A stretch of 64,000 bases of DNA, from positions 868,001 through 932,000 of the forward strand of contig JAPEUQ010000011.1 in assembly GCA_027946365.1 (NCBI GenBank), read 5' to 3'. Under the pieces are notes generated by a model. The model was not told the DNA's origin, ran no database searches, and was given only the letters and a program-made list of their open reading frames with translations. Both the position numbers and the translations under genes were made by a program. This document shows positions 16,609 through 62,684 of the stretch, piece after piece. The DNA is from Kalmusia sp. IMI 367209 (taxonomy: Eukaryota; Ascomycota; Dothideomycetes; Pleosporales; Didymosphaeriaceae). How positions within the stretch are numbered: the first letter of the stretch is position 1; the number at the start of each line of letters is the position of its first letter.

Positions 16609-19600
16609 TCACTTTTGCGCTTCCTCATCTCCCGTAGCTATTATTTCAGACGAGTTCTTCCTTCGTTTAAACACTTGGGACAATTTCCTTTCGACGAAGG
16701 CGGCCTTAAATGCAACCCAAATAAGTAGAGCCGATATGACAGTTGATATTGGGACTGTAATTTGATGAGCGGAAAGGCTATGCATCACCACAGACAGTAG
16801 AAGCCTACATATGATGGCGGAAACATAGCCAAGATCGAGTTTATCATCCACCCTCTTGTACTGGCGGATGTCGAGCTGAAACATCGTAGTCATAAAGGAT
16901 AGCGGGAGCTACGCTGCATGATTAGAAGTCTCCAACATTATTAGGTTACATACTTACGAAGATAATAGTTACAACAGTGAAGACCATTATAGTGCTTCCT
17001 TCTTTGTCAGCCTTCTTGGCTAAGGCCTCTGTTGTTTCTACCGAATTCTTGGTTTGCGCAGTAGATTCGTTGATACTCTTAGTTAGACTGGCTGTTTTTG
17101 AACTTAGTTCCAATGCTTTGTTCGAGTCAATGACGTTGTTGTGCTTGAGTTTCAAGTCGATAAGAAAGTTGACCTATGATTTTCGTCAGAATGAGCATAT
17201 TTTCTCTAGACTGGCTCTAGTACTTACTGAATTGTACGCTCTAGTCGCACGCTCTCTCATCCCTCTGATCTCCTCAATGCTGAGATTCACATGGTTTAAT
17301 AATAACCCGTCGCCGTGCTGCGCCCAGATTGTGCGTGGTCTAGCATCTTGATTGTTCTCTCGAATCACTCTCTTGTGTCTATTCTCCCCCGTAGACAGGG
17401 AAATTTTCCGGGGGTCTCTCTCTTCAGAGTCGCTCACGTCCTCACTACCTTTAGATATATTGACTTCGTCGTGATTCCGGAAATTTAGAAAGTGTACCCT
17501 ATTGCCTACCTCACCACGGATCAGGTTGAGGGCGCCATGGTTCTTAAAATCAACGAAGTCGATGCTATCACCTTCACCGTTCCCGAGCAAATTGAGGGTG
17601 CCGTGATTTCTGGTGTCTACAAACTGAAGCGTATTCCCAGAGACCTCATTGATAAAGCCGCTCCGTTGATTATACTTCATATCGCTCGATCGAATGATAC
17701 TGTCCAGATATCGGAACTCCTTCTTTTGGGCTTCGAATATAAATGCTTTGATGTTTAGCTCATCGAGCACGTCCTTGATTTCAGCAAGCCAGGAAATCTC
17801 GTCTTTGATATCTGCTAGTATGATCCTACCTTCCGGAGCTTTAGATAAATCTTGGAAATTCTTGAAAGCAGTAGCTTCCTTATGCATCTGAAAGTTCGTT
17901 AGTATTTGTACAGAGCTACGAGACCCAATTCTTATTTAATGTACAGTGTGCCACCTTCAAATATAGTATTGAGTCAAAAGACTGGAGATGCATTGTAGCC
18001 TGTGTTATGCCATATAGAACATAATTTGCGAAGACTTTCTCCGGGTATTTGACTGAAAGCTATACTATAAGGTGGTCATCTGTGCATAAAATGATTTACT
18101 GGATTTGCGACCAGCATTGGGAGTGACATACTATATTTCCAATGGCGTCCTCATACATGTCCGAGAATTGCACACCCTTATGGTCCTTACTGAGATCAAG
18201 TGTGCTCGCTGGATCTAAATAAGTGCGCGAGCACTTGGCCGCAATAAGACCAGCAAGATCATCGGCGTTGTGAACAGATCCTGGGTCATCAATCAAATGT
18301 CTCTTAATATTTTCGAGCACGTCGGTACGCCTATAGGGATCTGGATGGGTACTCTTTTCCAATTCTGCCACCCTTGGAAAGCAAGAGATGACGATGTCTG
18401 GCTTTCCTTCGGTTCCTCGTATTACCCATAGCCAAAGTTGATCTACCATACTAATGATGCTTGATGGAAGACCTTTGCTTTCTTGATAGCGGGTCGCAAC
18501 CTGGGAATCATCCCGACTCTCTGTGCTTTGCAATGTGTGGTAATAGTACTGGTCAAGCGTGCGCCGAATGTGTAGCGAGTGAGGGGTGTCATTAGAGTAC
18601 GTACCCACCAGCTCTGTTTCAGCTAGTTCCTTCGATGTTCCCAATGCGCTTTCCTTTGTTTCTAAGGCGCGCTGACGCTCCAATCTCATGGAATTGGCAT
18701 CCCAGTGGAGGAAAGGGATGAACAATACTAGATTAGGAGATGATACCAGCTTCCTTGGCCCCTTCGTACCGTCATACAATGACGTTGTCGCTTCATTTCC
18801 GAAATATTGACAATGCGGGCGCATGAACCTTGCGTGTGGCTTTCCAGTTGCTCCACGATGCTGTCGACGCACCCACCGCTCTGGTGTCAAAATTTGATAG
18901 GCTTTCGCAGGCTGTTCATACAGCTTTAGCATCAGAACTTCAACCCACAGCATATTGTTCGCTGGAAGGTGAAGCCATCGGAATTGTTCTCTTTCAGTGA
19001 CCGCCTTTGGAAAGGTGGGATCACTTAACAGCTCCTTAACTGATTTCTGTACGACAAGACGATTCAGACCAGCTACCGTGTCTTCAAACAGAACAACTGT
19101 TGCAATGAAACTGCAAGCGATCTTTTCTTCGACTTCCTTTAGTTTTTCGGCAAGTCTTCCCTCCTCATTTGCTTTGGTCAACATTCCCAAGATGGTATGT
19201 GCCTTGTCGGCTAGCTCGTCCGCTAGTTTGTCAGCTAGTTCGCCGACAAGTTTAAATGGAGTAGAGCCATCAATATTTGGTTTTCTTGTATCAGCTCCAA
19301 GATCAAGTAGCGCTTTTACAACAGCCTCGTGCCCCTCTTTGATGCTAATACATAGTGCTGTATTGCCTTCATGCGTTGAGTCTCTGTCTGCACCTGCTCT
19401 CAGCAGTATTTCCACTATTCTTGTCCAGCCCTGCCTTGCCGCAATGCAGAGAGGAATACTATATTCGACTTCCGGATTATAAACCCGGTCGCTTTCCATC
19501 AATATGGTCAAAAGATTGACCCAGCCTTCTGCAGCAGCTTTGTTGAGCCAATACTCGAGAAACTTCGACGACAATCCCATGATATTTGACTCATCCAAAA

Positions 19601-20666
19601 GCTCGAAGGCCTTCTTAACAAGAACAAGTAAAGTCTCCACGTGGCTCTTCTCCGATGCGATAGATATCGGACAGCCCTCTAAAGTTCTGCTTGGGTTCTC
19701 GAGGACCGGAGGGTACGAGGGCCGCACTAGCTCGCCTTTTACGTCCGCTTGGATATGGGGCCTTGCTAGGAGGTACTCTACGACGGTTGATTGACCTGAT
19801 CTAGCAGCCCATCCAAGTGCCGAGTAATGATTATAATCTTTTGTCCAAGCTGCCCCTTCATCTAGCAGCAATGCAACCATATCTAGCTGACCGCGCCTCG
19901 CAGCCCACAGCAGCGGTGTTCTTTTCTCATTATCATACTTATTGATATTGGCACTCCCCAACAAAATCTTAGCAGTCTCGACTTGCCCGTTTCCCGCAGC
20001 CCAGGATAATGCTGTTCTTCCGGAACTATCAACGTCATCTGCACCGGCTATGGACTTCGAAAGCAATTGTTGCAGGACATCGGACCATCCATGCGCTGCT
20101 GTCCAAATTGCAACTGATATTGGCGACTGGAAGCCGAGAAGTAAATCTTGGATGGTCCCTTTGAACTTCCTATGTGGATGAGGGTGTTGAATTTTAGAGG
20201 TGTAACTCCCGGATGCTGTATCAAGAGATGCAAGGGTACGAATAGTAATTGACTTCTTGGATACATCAAATCGTGGACGTAGTAGTATGGCAAAGGCAGA
20301 TTGTCTTGATATTCCTTTTGTAATCCATTGGACGCCGCTAGGCAGTATAGATTGTTTAATGCCATACTCTTCCTCCTCTTGCTTGGAAATTGTTTGATAT
20401 ACCACATCAGCTCCATATAGTGGAGATGATGTTGTAAAGAACACAGCCGCGTTGTCAATCTCTACCTTCTCTATCACATCTTCAGGAGGAGCGATGTCCA
20501 TACGTAGCTCGAGGATGGGAGTTGTTACACGCAATACAACCAGATATAGACTTTCATCTGGTGTGTCAGTAATCTGAGAGTAAATTTTTAACGTAAAGCT
20601 ACCGAAGGAATCGGTTGATTTTTTTGAGATCGGCTGAAAATCTCTATCAGAGGCTGTCAATGCCAT
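16609..20666 (-). CDS. Ankyrin-repeat protein with C-terminal CorA-like membrane domain
   Basis: Four exons in full phase: 20666-18132, 17887-17228, 17173-16958 and 16908-16609, giving about 1236 residues. The start is the ATG before ALTASDRDFQ; the frame is open 34 codons further, but that part looks non-coding. Residues from about 180 hold ankyrin repeats (SSGRTALSWAAGNGQVETAK; KRTPLLWAARRGQLDMVALL; GNTALCISIKEGHEAVVKAL). The second half matches the fungal CorA-like family: PHARFMRP, LHIRRTLDQYYYHTL, MVDQLWLWVI, EIKDVLDELNI, then TIMVFTVVTIIF joined over a 49-nt intron to LPLSFMTTMFQLDI, and a last hydrophobic helix. This architecture is typical of fungal proteins annotated as ankyrin/Mg2+-transporter-like. 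No GMN motif of true CorA channels was seen, so transport is unproven. The first intron (17888-18131, 244 nt) is long and has a perfect TACTAAC branch site; a small extra exon inside it is possible. Confidence 0.88.
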
Positions 20667-21503
20667 AGTAACGAAATGGTAAGCAAACAGCTGTATTCGA
20701 CTTGAGCGTCGTGACGGATGTATTGCCCCGTAAATGCCGCAATAATTTGAGCTTAGGAACTGGATCACAATGACAGTACAGCTGCGGCTGAATCTTTATA
20801 CTTGGTAAGCGTTGCCGCTTTAAGAAGGCGACCATGATAAGCAGTGTTATCTCGTTTAGAATATTGAAGGCGTTTGATGTACGATGTGGTTGGTTCTGGG
20901 ACCCGGCTGCAGATGCATGCGTTATTGGGGTGCAGTCACGCTGTCCATGTAGGAACGTGTGGGGGGTGATGGAGTGGGGCACGCGAAGGCGGGAAAGAGC
21001 CCACACCATGTTGTACAAGCCTTGTATACCACAGTAATTATTTTTGACAGACAATTGGAGATGCGCAACCGCCTTGAAAGCATTAGTGTACGTACGACTA
21101 CCTACTTATTTAAGTCCAATCTTGCAACGATCTCACTTAGTAGTCATTCGACGCAGAAGAGGTTCCGTACCTGGCATATTGTCACAACTAAACTCACTTT
21201 ATGGTAAAACATCCTCTACCTAGGGTTCGCGTAGAATTATTTCGTGAGAAAGATGCAAAAATTCGAATTGGAAATGATTGCGTGCCTGAGTTTTGGGAAT
21301 AGGGATTCGCACTCATGGTAGCTCCAGCCTACCGCTTTCCAGCCATGAGCGCCAAATTCAATCTCTCATCGATTCTTCACACCAATCATGTCTAAACATA
21401 TTGGTTTCTTTCTATCGAAGCAGTAGTAAAACTACCTCGTCCTCGGAGAAGATATAGGTCCAAAAAAAAAGGGGTAAATAACAAGTGCACAGCACCCTCT
21501 ACG
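20667..21503. other. Promoter side of the ankyrin/CorA-like gene
   Basis: No gene is seen. The DNA grows AT-rich towards the tRNA gene. Confidence 0.5.
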
Positions 21504-44783: not shown

Positions 44784-46252
44784 ATGTACCTCTCCGCATC
44801 GGTCTTGACCGCCGCCCTCGTGGTCACGGGGGTTACTGCGCACCCACAAAAGTCGAAATGCAAGCCGTTCCAGGGAGAATTTACTATCGATGAGTACCAG
44901 CTATACCCTGAAAATGCGGACTTCGATTTCAACACGTGCAAACTGTACATCGGCCAGCTTTGGAACGCATCTCTAGGCATCTACGACCCGTACACCAAGA
45001 AACATGAAGTCGTCGAGTTCCCAGGAATCTCGCACAACCCCACGCTCAACATGGGTGGTGTGGGCGTAGACAAGCGCACTGGCCTGTGAGTCCTCATCCT
45101 TCCATCCTCCCTTACACATTCATCAATTGCTGTCCTATCTGTTCACTTCATATAACGTTGACGGACCCTGACCATGTACAGTATCTCCCTCGTCGCCAAC
45201 GGCCCCCTAGAGTTCCCTACAAACGGCGCAAACATCACTGGCGACCGCTGGCTCATCTCCTATGATCCGCTTGCCAAGAAGACCGTCTACCAAGTAAACC
45301 TCACCGCCACCTCGCAAGGCAAGTACGGCGGCTTTCAAGATGTCGAGCAGGATCCTGCCGGCAACACCTTCGTCGTGGGATCCTTCCCTGGCACGCTCAC
45401 CAAGGTCTCCAAGGATGGGAAGACCGTCACCCCGTGGTATCTCCCTGCGACGATCAACAGCACGAACAAGGGCCTAAGCGGTATTGCTACGGATGGGTGG
45501 ACCTTGCTCGCGTACGGCGACGCAAGCGGCGAGCTGTGGAAGTTTGACACGAGGGCGAAGACGGGTGTTCCCACCGTTGTGCCTGTGAAAGGAAACCACA
45601 CCTTCGTGGGTAGCGACGCCATCTACCTCCCGCCAAAGTACAACTCGGCTGTTCTCCTTATCGCCGAGGCCGCTGCTGGCGTGAGCGTCTTCAAGTCCAC
45701 CGATGGATGGAAGTCAGCCGACTTCTTGGGTACCGTGGGACTTGCGCCGGTGAGTAAACCCCACATCTTTTCATTTTTCCTCTTGCAAGGAAGGCGAAGA
45801 GCCAGGACAAGATCAGCTGCTGATGATACGCATAGGTCGACCCTGGCACCGTGCTCGTAGCCCCCGTCCAAGTCGGCGACGGCATCTAGCAAGTCTTCGC
45901 CTACTTCGGCGACGAGGGCCTCGGCGGCCCCGGCACCGCTGGCTCGCGCGCCCAGTTCCCCTTCTACGACATCTCGGCCGAGGTCGACAAGCTGGTCAAG
46001 GGATGCTCCAAGGCGCACCGTCGCAGCGAAGAGCCTGAGCAGGCCGAGGTAGCCTCGTGGTACTACAAGGGCCACTCAAAGCGGAGCGAGGAGGCTGAAC
46101 AGAGCGAGGTAGCATCTTGGTATCTAAAGGGACACTCGAAGCGCAATGAGGAGGCTGAGCAGGGAGGCGTGGCGAGCTGGTATTACAAGGGACATTCGAA
46201 GCGGAGCGAGGAGACGCCAGAGGTGGCGAGCTGGTACTACAAGGGCCATTAG
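44784..46252 (+). CDS. Secreted TRI14/Mala s 1-like beta-propeller with C-terminal kexin-type repeats; in-frame TAG
   Basis: Exons 44784-45085, 45182-45749 and 45836-46252 make 428 codons, one of which (codon 308, 45887-45889) is TAG. Residues 1-19 form a signal peptide (YLSASVLTAALVVTGVTA). Residues about 25-345 match the secreted propeller family that includes Fusarium TRI14 and the Malassezia allergen Mala s 1 (for example GGFQDVEQDPAGNTFVVGSF and STNKGLSGIATDGW). From codon 354 there are four repeats of period 20 ending in Lys-Arg, with core WYYKGH or WYLKGH, as in kexin-processed peptide precursors. The frame after the TAG is perfectly kept, so the stop is recent, read through, polymorphic or an assembly error. 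If it acts as a stop, the repeats are not made. TRI14 itself is not a toxin-forming enzyme. Confidence 0.75.
46025..46249 (+). repeat. Four 60-bp coding repeats (kexin-cleavable peptides)
   Basis: Units are 46025-46084, 46085-46144, 46145-46204 and a shortened last unit 46205-46249. Each encodes an acidic Ser/Glu/Ala/Gln spacer, then VASWYYKGHS (WYLKGHS in unit 2), then Lys-Arg. The last unit ends the protein directly after the core. An Arg-Arg pair precedes the first unit. Synonymous differences between units (for example TGGTACTAC versus TGGTATTAC) show that the peptide core is held constant while the third positions drift. Confidence 0.93.
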
Positions 46253-60480: not shown

Positions 60481-62684
60481 ATGAAGCTCACTGCCTTCAG
60501 CCTCTTCGGAGGGCTTGCAACATCTGTCGTAGCACAAGACCTTCTCTTTCTCGAGGGCCTGCAATACCAGGAATATAGTGAAGCAATCACCCTAGGCTAC
60601 ACTGCTAAGACCGTCACCGAAGCCGAATGGGCTGCTTTGACCACCGAGGACTTTTCCAAATTCAAGGCCATCATCGTGCCCGATCCATCTTGCGGCAGTG
60701 TCGACCGCATCAAGTTTCTTGAGGACTCGAGGGATGCATGGAGCCCGGCTGTGACCGGTAACATTATCTTGATCGGTACGTACATTCTTTGGCTTGAGTC
60801 TACGGCTAGTCTTCTTGTGTGTTGCAGATCTTGGGATGTCTGAGTGCCCTCTGCATCGTCAAATATTCATCTGAAAGCTCCCTCCTAGGTCTACTCAACA
60901 CAAATTTCATTGAGGCAATGTCACTAATGGGTTACACTTAGGGACCGATCCATCTTATCACTTCCTCCAAGGCCGAGCCAAGACCCTGATTGACAACTCG
61001 ATCAATTTCGCTGCTGCTGGCAAAGACACCAAGGGCAACTCGCTGACTGGTTTGTACTTCGCCTTGTCATGCTACTATGGTGGTGTGCCTAGCGCTAAGG
61101 TTGAGGCTGTAAGTACACGAAGTTCCCATCATCCACAAAGCTGAACTAGTCCAGCTCTCTCGCATTGGTGACTTCACCGTCCGCGGCGATATCGGCTGCT
61201 ACAATAAAGCCCACCTTGTCGCTTCCTCGGAAGCACTTACCTCTCTCGACGATGATTCCGTCTCCAATTGGTCCTGTAGTGTGCACGAAGCCTTCTCATC
61301 ATACCCCTCCGTTGGCGCGAATGGTTTCCAAGCGTTCGCTATCGCGCAGGATGTCGTAGGCGTGGGCTCTCAGGAATTTGGTGACGGCACCATTGGTCTG
61401 CCATATATCCTCTCGCGCGGTGCTACACCTGCGAAATGTGGTGACGGCACATGGGATGAGTCCTTGGGCGAGGAGTGCGATGATGGAAACACCGTGAATG
61501 GAGATGGCTGCTCGCTGAGTTGCAAGTGTGAGAGCGGTTTGCCCAAGGGAGATGGGACTTGCGAGCCTCCAGTCGTTTCCTCTTCGTCTGTTGTCTCTTC
61601 AGGTACAGCATACAGCACCGGGACCGCATACAGCACCGTAACAACCTCAGGCACCGCCGTTTACAGCACTGGATCGTCAGCTTACGGGACCGGCTCGTAC
61701 TCGACACTTTCAACGTCTTATGGGAGTGGTTATAACGCTTCATCTTCTTCTTCATATCCCACAGGAACTGGATCCTACGTTGTGTCATCCCCATACGCTA
61801 CAAGCGACTCGACTTCTTACGGAGAAGCAAGTGAATCACACTATTCAGTCCCCACCTCTACCCCCGGTTACTCTGCCGGAAGCTCGAGCTACCCTGTTGA
61901 GTCAAGTTACGTCGCCAGCCACAGCTCGGAAGACTATCTTCATTATCCTCATTCAAGCTACGTAGCGAGTCACAGCTCCAAGAGCTACGGCCATCCTCAT
62001 GGATACCCCCACGGTCCCTCTCACACCCCAAAGCCCTACGGCATCCCCACCTCCGCGCCTTACCCATTCCATCACAGCTACACTCCCCCACCATATGCAA
62101 CGCCGTCCTGCCCAACTGGACCCAAGATAATCGGTGTCGAGTACATCGTTGAAGCGACTTACACCCACTCCTCCTATAAACCACACCACACCTCCATCCG
62201 CCCTATCTACGACGCCCCCACCTCGAAGCTCCCCTGCTACATCTGCGCCATCAAATCCGAGCACATGACCTACACGACGACTGAGTTCGTCACCGTTACC
62301 ACCACGACCGTGAAAGAAACGAGCGGCCCGAGCAGCTACTTCGCACCGGTCGTGAAGCCTTGCGCCACGTGCGACGCGCACACCTTGACTTACACTGAGG
62401 CGATTGGGGACAGCCATACGGAGTACGTTGGCGTGCCTTATGTAGCCCCCACACCTCATGTGCACAAGACGATGGAACAGGAAGGGTACACGGCGACAGT
62501 GTATCAGACGAGCACCGGCATTGTTGAATATCCGATGCCGACTGTGATGCCGACGAAGACGGGTGGATATTATCCTGCGAATACGACTGGGTTAGTCGAG
62601 TTTACGGGTGCAGCAGTGCCGATGGAGGTGCAGATTGCTGGGGCGATTGGCGGTGCGCTGATGGCTGCTGCGGGGCTGTTGTAA
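60481..62684 (+). CDS. GPI-anchored cell-wall protein with DUF4215-like cysteine-rich repeat
   Basis: Exons 60481-60775, 60942-61108 and 61155-62684 give 663 residues. Residues 1-18 form a signal peptide ([17 protein letters not shown]). Residues about 20-245 form an unnamed globular domain. At residues about 249-277 stands [20 protein letters not shown] followed by [11 protein letters not shown], the cysteine pattern known from DUF4215/Myxococcus cysteine-rich repeats. Then comes a long Ser/Thr/Tyr/Pro/His-rich stalk with short repeats ([40 protein letters not shown]) and a region with paired cysteines ([26 protein letters not shown]). The C-terminus ([17 protein letters not shown] after a small-residue site) fits a GPI-anchor signal. 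It is probably an adhesin or structural wall protein. The first intron is 166 nt, long for this genome. Confidence 0.85.

What the first reader, a model, noticed from the sequence alone, without database searches (positions are those of the whole stretch)
44784..46252. Secreted propeller protein fused to kexin-cleavable peptide repeats
Seen: a signal peptide, a TRI14/Mala s 1-like propeller, then four 20-residue repeats bounded by Lys-Arg with the constant core WYYKGH/WYLKGH and acidic Glu/Ala spacers. Known: dikaritin-type RiPP precursors (ustiloxin, asperipin, phomopsin, victorin) and alpha-pheromone precursors have repeated cores separated by kexin sites. They normally follow a short leader, not a complete globular domain. 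Inference: the propeller could act as carrier or chaperone, or the peptide could be a separate secreted signal. Aromatic-rich cores such as WYY are typical substrates for UstYa-type cyclisation. This is the best candidate here for an undescribed system.
Basis: partly seen in the sequence, partly recalled or inferred. Interest (0 to 1): 0.9.

Follow-up and report, generated by a model that had tools for sequence, protein, structure and literature searches.

The report
Propeller protein with releasable peptide tail
One family of plant-associated fungi has a secreted propeller-shaped protein that ends in a string of small peptides apparently set to be cut loose, an unusual way to package possible signal peptides, although the copy in this strain carries a premature stop.

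Summary
The repeats are real: exon 3 encodes three 20-residue units and a last one of 15, each with W-Y-[YL]-K-G-H, preceded by one Arg-Arg and separated by three Lys-Arg. Between copies the cores differ far more at synonymous (pS 0.83) than nonsynonymous sites (pN 0.14). GenBank's protein for this gene avoids it by dropping a conserved strand. The strain is cf. Kalmusia sp. IMI 367209. Four other Didymosphaeriaceae carry such tails; 110 of 115 relatives that reach the propeller end have none. The tail fits one origin. The nearest UstYa match is about 294 kb away, so a clustered dikaritin is not supported. Best reading: a secreted Mala s 1-like propeller that acquired a Kex2-processed repeat tail releasing linear aromatic peptides; in this strain the tail is probably cut off or made only at low level. 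Release is inferred, not shown. New variant of a known kind.

The parts
44784..45085 (+). exon 1: signal-peptide-like start (44784-44840) and first part of the propeller
   Evidence: translation; P0002-P0006 begin alike; signal peptide judged by eye
45086..45181 (+). intron 1 (GTGAGT...CTGAC...CAG)
   Evidence: protein continuity with relatives
45182..45749 (+). exon 2: main part of the Mala s 1-like propeller
   Evidence: P0003 matches here at 81% identity
45750..45835 (+). intron 2 (GTGAGT...CTGAT...TAG), expected acceptor
   Evidence: within 45750-45889 a CTRAY branch-like motif occurs only at 45820; relatives contain the residues that follow the acceptor
45836..46252 (+). exon 3: last propeller strands and repeat tail, interrupted by an in-frame stop
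45887..45889 (+). in-frame TAG, at a position that is Tyr/Phe in 62 of 64 other aligned relatives
45836..45889 (+). stretch treated as intron in the GenBank protein N0V90_009787 (P0002), removing 17 residues and the stop
   Evidence: strand 295-303 of the P0003 model lies in the matching segment 291-307
46019..46024 (+). Arg-Arg at the propeller/tail boundary
46025..46084 (+). unit 1 SEEPEQAEVASWYYKGHS-KR
46085..46144 (+). unit 2 SEEAEQSEVASWYLKGHS-KR
46145..46204 (+). unit 3 NEEAEQGGVASWYYKGHS-KR
46205..46249 (+). unit 4 SEETPEVASWYYKGH, C-terminal; stop codon 46250-46252

Best explanation
In Didymosphaeriaceae a secreted Mala s 1/TRI14-like propeller (single-copy in this genome) gained a C-terminal tail of Kex2-processed repeats. 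The protein enters the secretory pathway; Kex2 cuts after Arg-Arg/Lys-Arg in the disordered tail, carboxypeptidase Kex1 trims the basic residues, and 2-5 linear peptides, 15-21 residues long but for one of 27 (acidic N-terminal half; core W-[YW]-[YL]-K, mostly followed by G-H), are released beside a free propeller. The peptides most likely act as diffusible extracellular signals, self-directed or towards a plant host. Shown: tail, repeats, dibasic spacing, conservation, fit to one origin, predicted disorder of the tail, a kexin-type P-domain locus in the genome. Inferred: secretion, cleavage, trimming, linear form and signal role. In this strain the in-frame TAG should end translation inside the propeller, so the copy is probably a recent null or makes its tail only by rare bypass.
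For: Tails in P0002-P0006, whose five genera are all listed in Didymosphaeriaceae, and in none of the other 110 of 115 relatives that reach the propeller end. The tailed rows are one clade, support 100/100, 100% of 200 bootstrap trees. 18 of 19 predicted pieces carry W-[YW]-[YL]-K and 12 of 19 the full K-G-H, while spacers and unit number vary (my count). The dibasic property is kept though letters change: three of four sites are KR in Kalmusia, RR in the others except the first Bimuria site. pS 0.83 vs pN 0.14 between cores. In the P0003 model every block of ten residues from 31 to 340 has pLDDT 88 or more, and 358-436 lie below 50. Best PDB fold match Mala s 1, E 6.1e-19. One P_proprotein locus in the genome. 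Tail, propeller and family each matched one locus. Stop: 208x short-read coverage with Pilon polishing makes a base error unlikely; 56 of 59 near-invariant positions are kept, with one E-to-D change and two that only the GenBank model lacks, so little other decay.
Against: No transcript, proteomic or peptide data. The premature stop means this strain's own copy may make no tail. Published KEP surveys define KEPs in ways this protein fails or barely meets. Conserved dibasic sites could also serve an uncleaved tail. The six core pairs behind pS/pN are not independent and are uncorrected (two exceed 1).
Confidence: 0.6

Rival explanations
1. The tail is not cleaved: it is a flexible, aromatic-rich binding tail (to cell wall or partner) of the secreted propeller, and the dibasic residues are part of the binding motif.
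For: The tail is predicted disordered; aromatic W-Y-Y with K and H recurs; Mala s 1 is mainly in the cell wall (start of abstract, and passages, of PMC10281499).
Against: Dibasic letters switch KR/RR between lineages while the site stays just after the core, and a dibasic site sits at the domain boundary in all five, as Kex2 processing would need.
Confidence: 0.2
2. Dikaritin-type RiPP: the aromatic cores are cyclised by UstYa-type oxidases and the propeller is an oversized leader.
For: Signal-like start, Kex2-like repeats, Tyr/Trp-rich cores; UstYa-family genes are abundant in this genome (102 exon-level matches); Y is commoner in repeats of UstYa-accompanied KEPs (65.6% vs 38.2%, PMC7329392 section 7).
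Against: Nearest UstYa match on the contig is about 294 kb away, whereas accompanying UstYa genes average 3.09 genes away (PMC7329392); recognised neighbours include HAUS6, HD-domain, WD40, glycosyltransferase 4, aconitase-type and Cdc73 genes. An unclustered UstYa cannot be excluded.
Confidence: 0.08
3. Programmed control in this strain: the TAG or the alternative acceptor ending at 45889 makes two products, a truncated protein and a tail-bearing one by readthrough or alternative splicing.
For: Acceptor 45889 keeps the frame; the tail cores keep their amino acids and conserved propeller positions are kept.
Against: The four other tailed relatives have Tyr there, not a stop; no CTRAY motif between 45836 and 45889, and another YAG intervenes at 45860; the skipped strand is kept in the other aligned relatives. 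Readthrough context was not tested.
Confidence: 0.08
4. The peptide is this family's alpha-type sex pheromone.
For: Same kind of precursor logic; no exact match to one DNA pattern for the Pleosporales motif PYG[L/M]P[I/V]G in this genome.
Against: Core shares neither the PYGxPxG nor the two-Cys motif of Dothideomycete pheromones (PMC6339444 section 4); no regular Ste13 X-A/X-P series right after the cleavage sites (by eye). The pattern would miss variants, introns and a Val coded GTG, so the empty result is weak.
Confidence: 0.05

Closest known systems
Kex2-processed repeat proteins (KEPs; Le Marquer 2019, Umemura 2020)
   Same: secretory-type start, several short repeats between KR/RR sites, conserved core with variable spacer, unit number changing between species
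   Different: a complete globular propeller of about 330 residues precedes the repeats; longest dibasic-free stretch 127-211 residues in the five against the 100-residue limit stated in the 2020 survey
Mala s 1 (PDB 2p9w) / TRI14 family (PF22701)
   Same: sequence and fold of the propeller
   Different: 110 of 115 relatives that reach the domain end carry no repeat tail; the 2p9w chain is 334 residues long, about one domain
Dikaritin precursors (ustiloxin, phomopsin, asperipin)
   Same: signal-type start and Kex2-bounded aromatic cores
   Different: no UstYa match nearby; the known ones have a short leader instead of a domain (recalled)
Borosins (omphalotin precursor OphMA; recalled, no call)
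   Same: an N-terminal folded domain with the peptide core at its C-terminus
   Different: there the domain is a methyltransferase in the cytosol; here no activity on the tail is known

Membership tests
KEP (Umemura 2020 definition) | signal peptide for the ER | tested here: inconclusive
   hydrophobic N-terminus by eye and in four relatives; no SignalP available
KEP (Umemura 2020 definition) | at least 3 tandem repeats of at least 8 aa between KR/KK/RK/RR | tested here: met
   4 units in the window; core-bearing units in relatives 4, 3, 2 and 5, so P0005 as modelled falls short; rule
KEP (Umemura 2020 definition) | no separated sequence longer than 100 aa | tested here: not met
   longest dibasic-free stretch 127-211 aa in the five; rule as worded in the passage (section 13, words it for repeated sequences, which would be met)
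KEP (Le Marquer 2019 definition) | repeats make up at least 15% of the protein | tested here: inconclusive
   about 8-17% across the five, 14.6% for P0002, by hand from lengths; rule
Dikaritin RiPP | UstYa/DUF3328 gene in the cluster | tested here: not met
   nearest PF11807 match on the contig about 294 kb away
Dikaritin RiPP | oxidative cross-link in the product | not testable with these tools
   needs LC-MS
Mala s 1-like / TRI14 family | PF22701 match and propeller fold | tested here: met
   PF22701 36.9 bits over cut-off 27.5; 2p9w first by sequence and, for the relative P0003, by fold
Alpha pheromone of Pleosporales | PYG[L/M]P[I/V]G core | tested here: not met
   not in the tail; no exact match of one DNA pattern in the genome

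The most novel reading that the evidence does not exclude
An enzyme and its own substrate in one chain: the TRI14-like propeller acts in cis on the aromatic cores of its C-terminal tail before Kex2 frees them, so that neither a UstYa gene nor a cluster is needed. This would be a new route to modified fungal peptides, comparable in layout to borosins but secretory and propeller-based. It draws on the report that Tri14 is a cyclase (introduction passages of PMC12474229).
Probability: 0.06. Interest if true: 0.9.

Novelty: new variant of a known kind. Interest (0 to 1): 0.5.

Why it matters
Two published surveys of fungal peptide precursors use filters on long non-repeat segments or on the share of repeats that this kind of protein fails or barely passes, so folded proteins with a peptide tail could be missed as a class. 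A tail conserved across five genera of one fungal family and not seen in the other relatives gives a clean test of how Kex2 peptides originate: here apparently by extending an existing secreted protein. The premature stop in one endophyte offers a natural comparison of fungi with and without the peptides.

Tried and rejected
Dikaritin cluster: rejected on distance of UstYa. Stand-alone relatives of the tail: profile search A1 gave 4745 candidates and none at E<=1; the region search of P0003 found only P0003, P0004 and P0005 among 46 candidates and missed the tails of P0002 and P0006, so both negatives are weak. Second propeller or tail copy in the genome: none found (core DNA pattern 3 matches, all here, reversed control 1). 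Alpha-pheromone: one exact pattern absent; the two-Cys pattern gave 238 matches against 109 for the reversed control and says nothing. TRF flagged other short arrays in the window, not followed. The weak Pfam hit of the tail (zf-CCCH_RBM22, 19.8 bits against a cut-off of 53) is taken as noise. Paper searches for TRI14+Kex2, for the core motifs or PF22701, and for KEPs with globular domains found nothing; Kex2+beta-propeller gave one unrelated paper (listing only); the library is open-access only. My first exon-3 translation was one base out of frame and was discarded.

Full report
Identity. The gene's product is P0002, a GenBank protein of Kalmusia sp. IMI 367209. The strain is an endophyte reported as cf. 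Kalmusia sp. in Didymosphaeriaceae (PMC10027605, passages and section 5). The window is contig 3, bases 868001-932000, of a 42.78 Mb genome.

Gene structure. Exons 44784-45085, 45182-45749 and 45836-46252 line up with relatives. With the expected acceptor at 45834-45835, which has a CTRAY motif at 45820, exon 3 reads VDPGTVLVAPVQVGDGI, then TAG at 45887-45889, then the last propeller strands and the tail. In A2, 65 rows chosen from the 120 listed hits, this position is Tyr in 50, Phe in 12, Asn in 1, Leu in 1 and a gap in P0002. P0002 joins 45749 to 45890 and so lacks those 17 residues; no other row has gaps at 9 or more of the 17 positions. The AlphaFold model of P0003 puts one strand (295-303) in that segment, another (306-313) across the stop position (308), and the last strand (330-335) beyond it. 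The GenBank form is therefore probably an annotation work-around. The assembly was polished with 208x short reads, so the stop is probably real. 56 of 59 near-invariant positions are kept in P0002 (for comparison 56-58 of 61-62 in P0003-P0006), so the stop is probably recent or tolerated. Four relatives have copies without the stop.

Repeats. Four units: SEEPEQAEVASWYYKGHS-KR, SEEAEQSEVASWYLKGHS-KR, NEEAEQGGVASWYYKGHS-KR and SEETPEVASWYYKGH. Across the six pairs of 10-residue cores, synonymous differences are 28.75 over 34.5 sites and nonsynonymous 20.25 over 145.5 sites (pS 0.83, pN 0.14); for the three 20-residue units pS is 0.76 and pN 0.14. The peptide sequence has been held while the DNA drifted. 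The pairs are not independent, values are uncorrected, and concerted evolution was not modelled.

Relatives. The homologue search gave 146 proteins at E<=0.001, of which the best 120 were listed. Of 121 proteins held (the 120 plus an exon-1 fragment), 115 reach the end of the propeller and 5 have tails: P0002 (own), P0003 Didymosphaeria variabile, P0004 Paraphaeosphaeria sporulosa, P0005 Paraconiothyrium brasiliense, P0006 Bimuria novae-zelandiae. All five genera are listed in Didymosphaeriaceae. Two further rows met my loose flag but have no repeat tail: P0052 (two dibasic pairs, no extra length) and P0106 (does not reach the end). The tailed rows form one clade, support 100/100, on a long stem (0.54), with Kalmusia branching first (99/90), so the tail probably predates these genera. 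Of 19 predicted pieces, 18 carry W-[YW]-[YL]-K and 12 of 19 K-G-H; the piece without a core is the end of P0005 (counted). Without the dibasic residues the 18 are 15-21 residues long, except one of 27 in Bimuria.

Genome context. UstYa: 102 exon-level matches, none in the window; the nearest on the contig is at C3:1208440, about 294 kb from the gene. Of 20 window ORFs taken from the lists had a Pfam family at E<=1e-5 (MFS, HAUS6, HD, WD40 twice, glycosyltransferase 4, aconitase and its C-terminal domain, mannitol dehydrogenase, ankyrin, kinase, DUF4215, Cdc73) and 7 had none. The locus does not look like a biosynthetic cluster. Propeller, family and tail each match one locus in the genome, and the core DNA pattern occurs only here, 3 times, with 1 match for the reversed control (the WYLKGH copy does not fit the pattern). 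One kexin-type P-domain locus exists.

Mechanism. Best reading: secretion, Kex2 cleavage in a disordered tail, Kex1 trimming, release of linear peptides. The sequence, predicted fold and conserved sites are shown; every processing step is inferred from the known Kex2 pathway. The propeller's own role is unknown. Mala s 1 binds lipids such as phosphatidylinositols and sits in the cell wall (PMC10281499 passages); Tri14-GFP is at the ER (PMC5347122 passages); Tri14 was reported to be a cyclase (PMC12474229 introduction passages).

Comparison. It works like a KEP. By the 100-residue rule of the 2020 survey (PMC7329392; abstract, sections 6 part 1, 7, 9, 13 and passages seen) it would be excluded, and by the 15% rule of the 2019 survey (PMC6339444; abstract and sections 4 and 24 seen) it is borderline. 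Whether either survey's supplementary lists hold it could not be checked. Membership among dikaritins is not supported. I therefore call it a new variant: a folded secreted domain with a KEP-like tail.

Noticed in passing
window 45836-45889: The deposited protein N0V90_009787 (P0002) looks like a gene-model artefact that skips an in-frame stop by dropping a conserved strand; automated annotation may hide other broken genes this way.
   Followed up: yes
P0006 (Bimuria novae-zelandiae): Tail has an internal partial duplication (AAWWEESAPAV) and near-identical units, suggesting recent unit turnover; residues near 140-160 look mis-spliced.
   Followed up: no
G000, whole genome: 102 exon-level UstYa (PF11807) matches, several close together on contigs 4, 9, 23, 25 and 26 (some may be exons of one gene): this endophyte seems rich in possible UstYa clusters.
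   Followed up: no
A2 tree, stem of the tailed clade: Long stem branch (0.54) ahead of the tailed clade: the propeller itself may have changed quickly around the time the tail appeared.
   Followed up: partly
window 61113-62684 (+): ORF with a weak DUF4215 match and a long Ser/Tyr/Pro-rich region, looks like a cell-surface protein.
   Followed up: no
window 17186-20795 (-): Two adjacent ORFs, one with ankyrin repeats (18096-20795) and one without a Pfam family (17186-17935), possibly one NLR-like gene.
   Followed up: no
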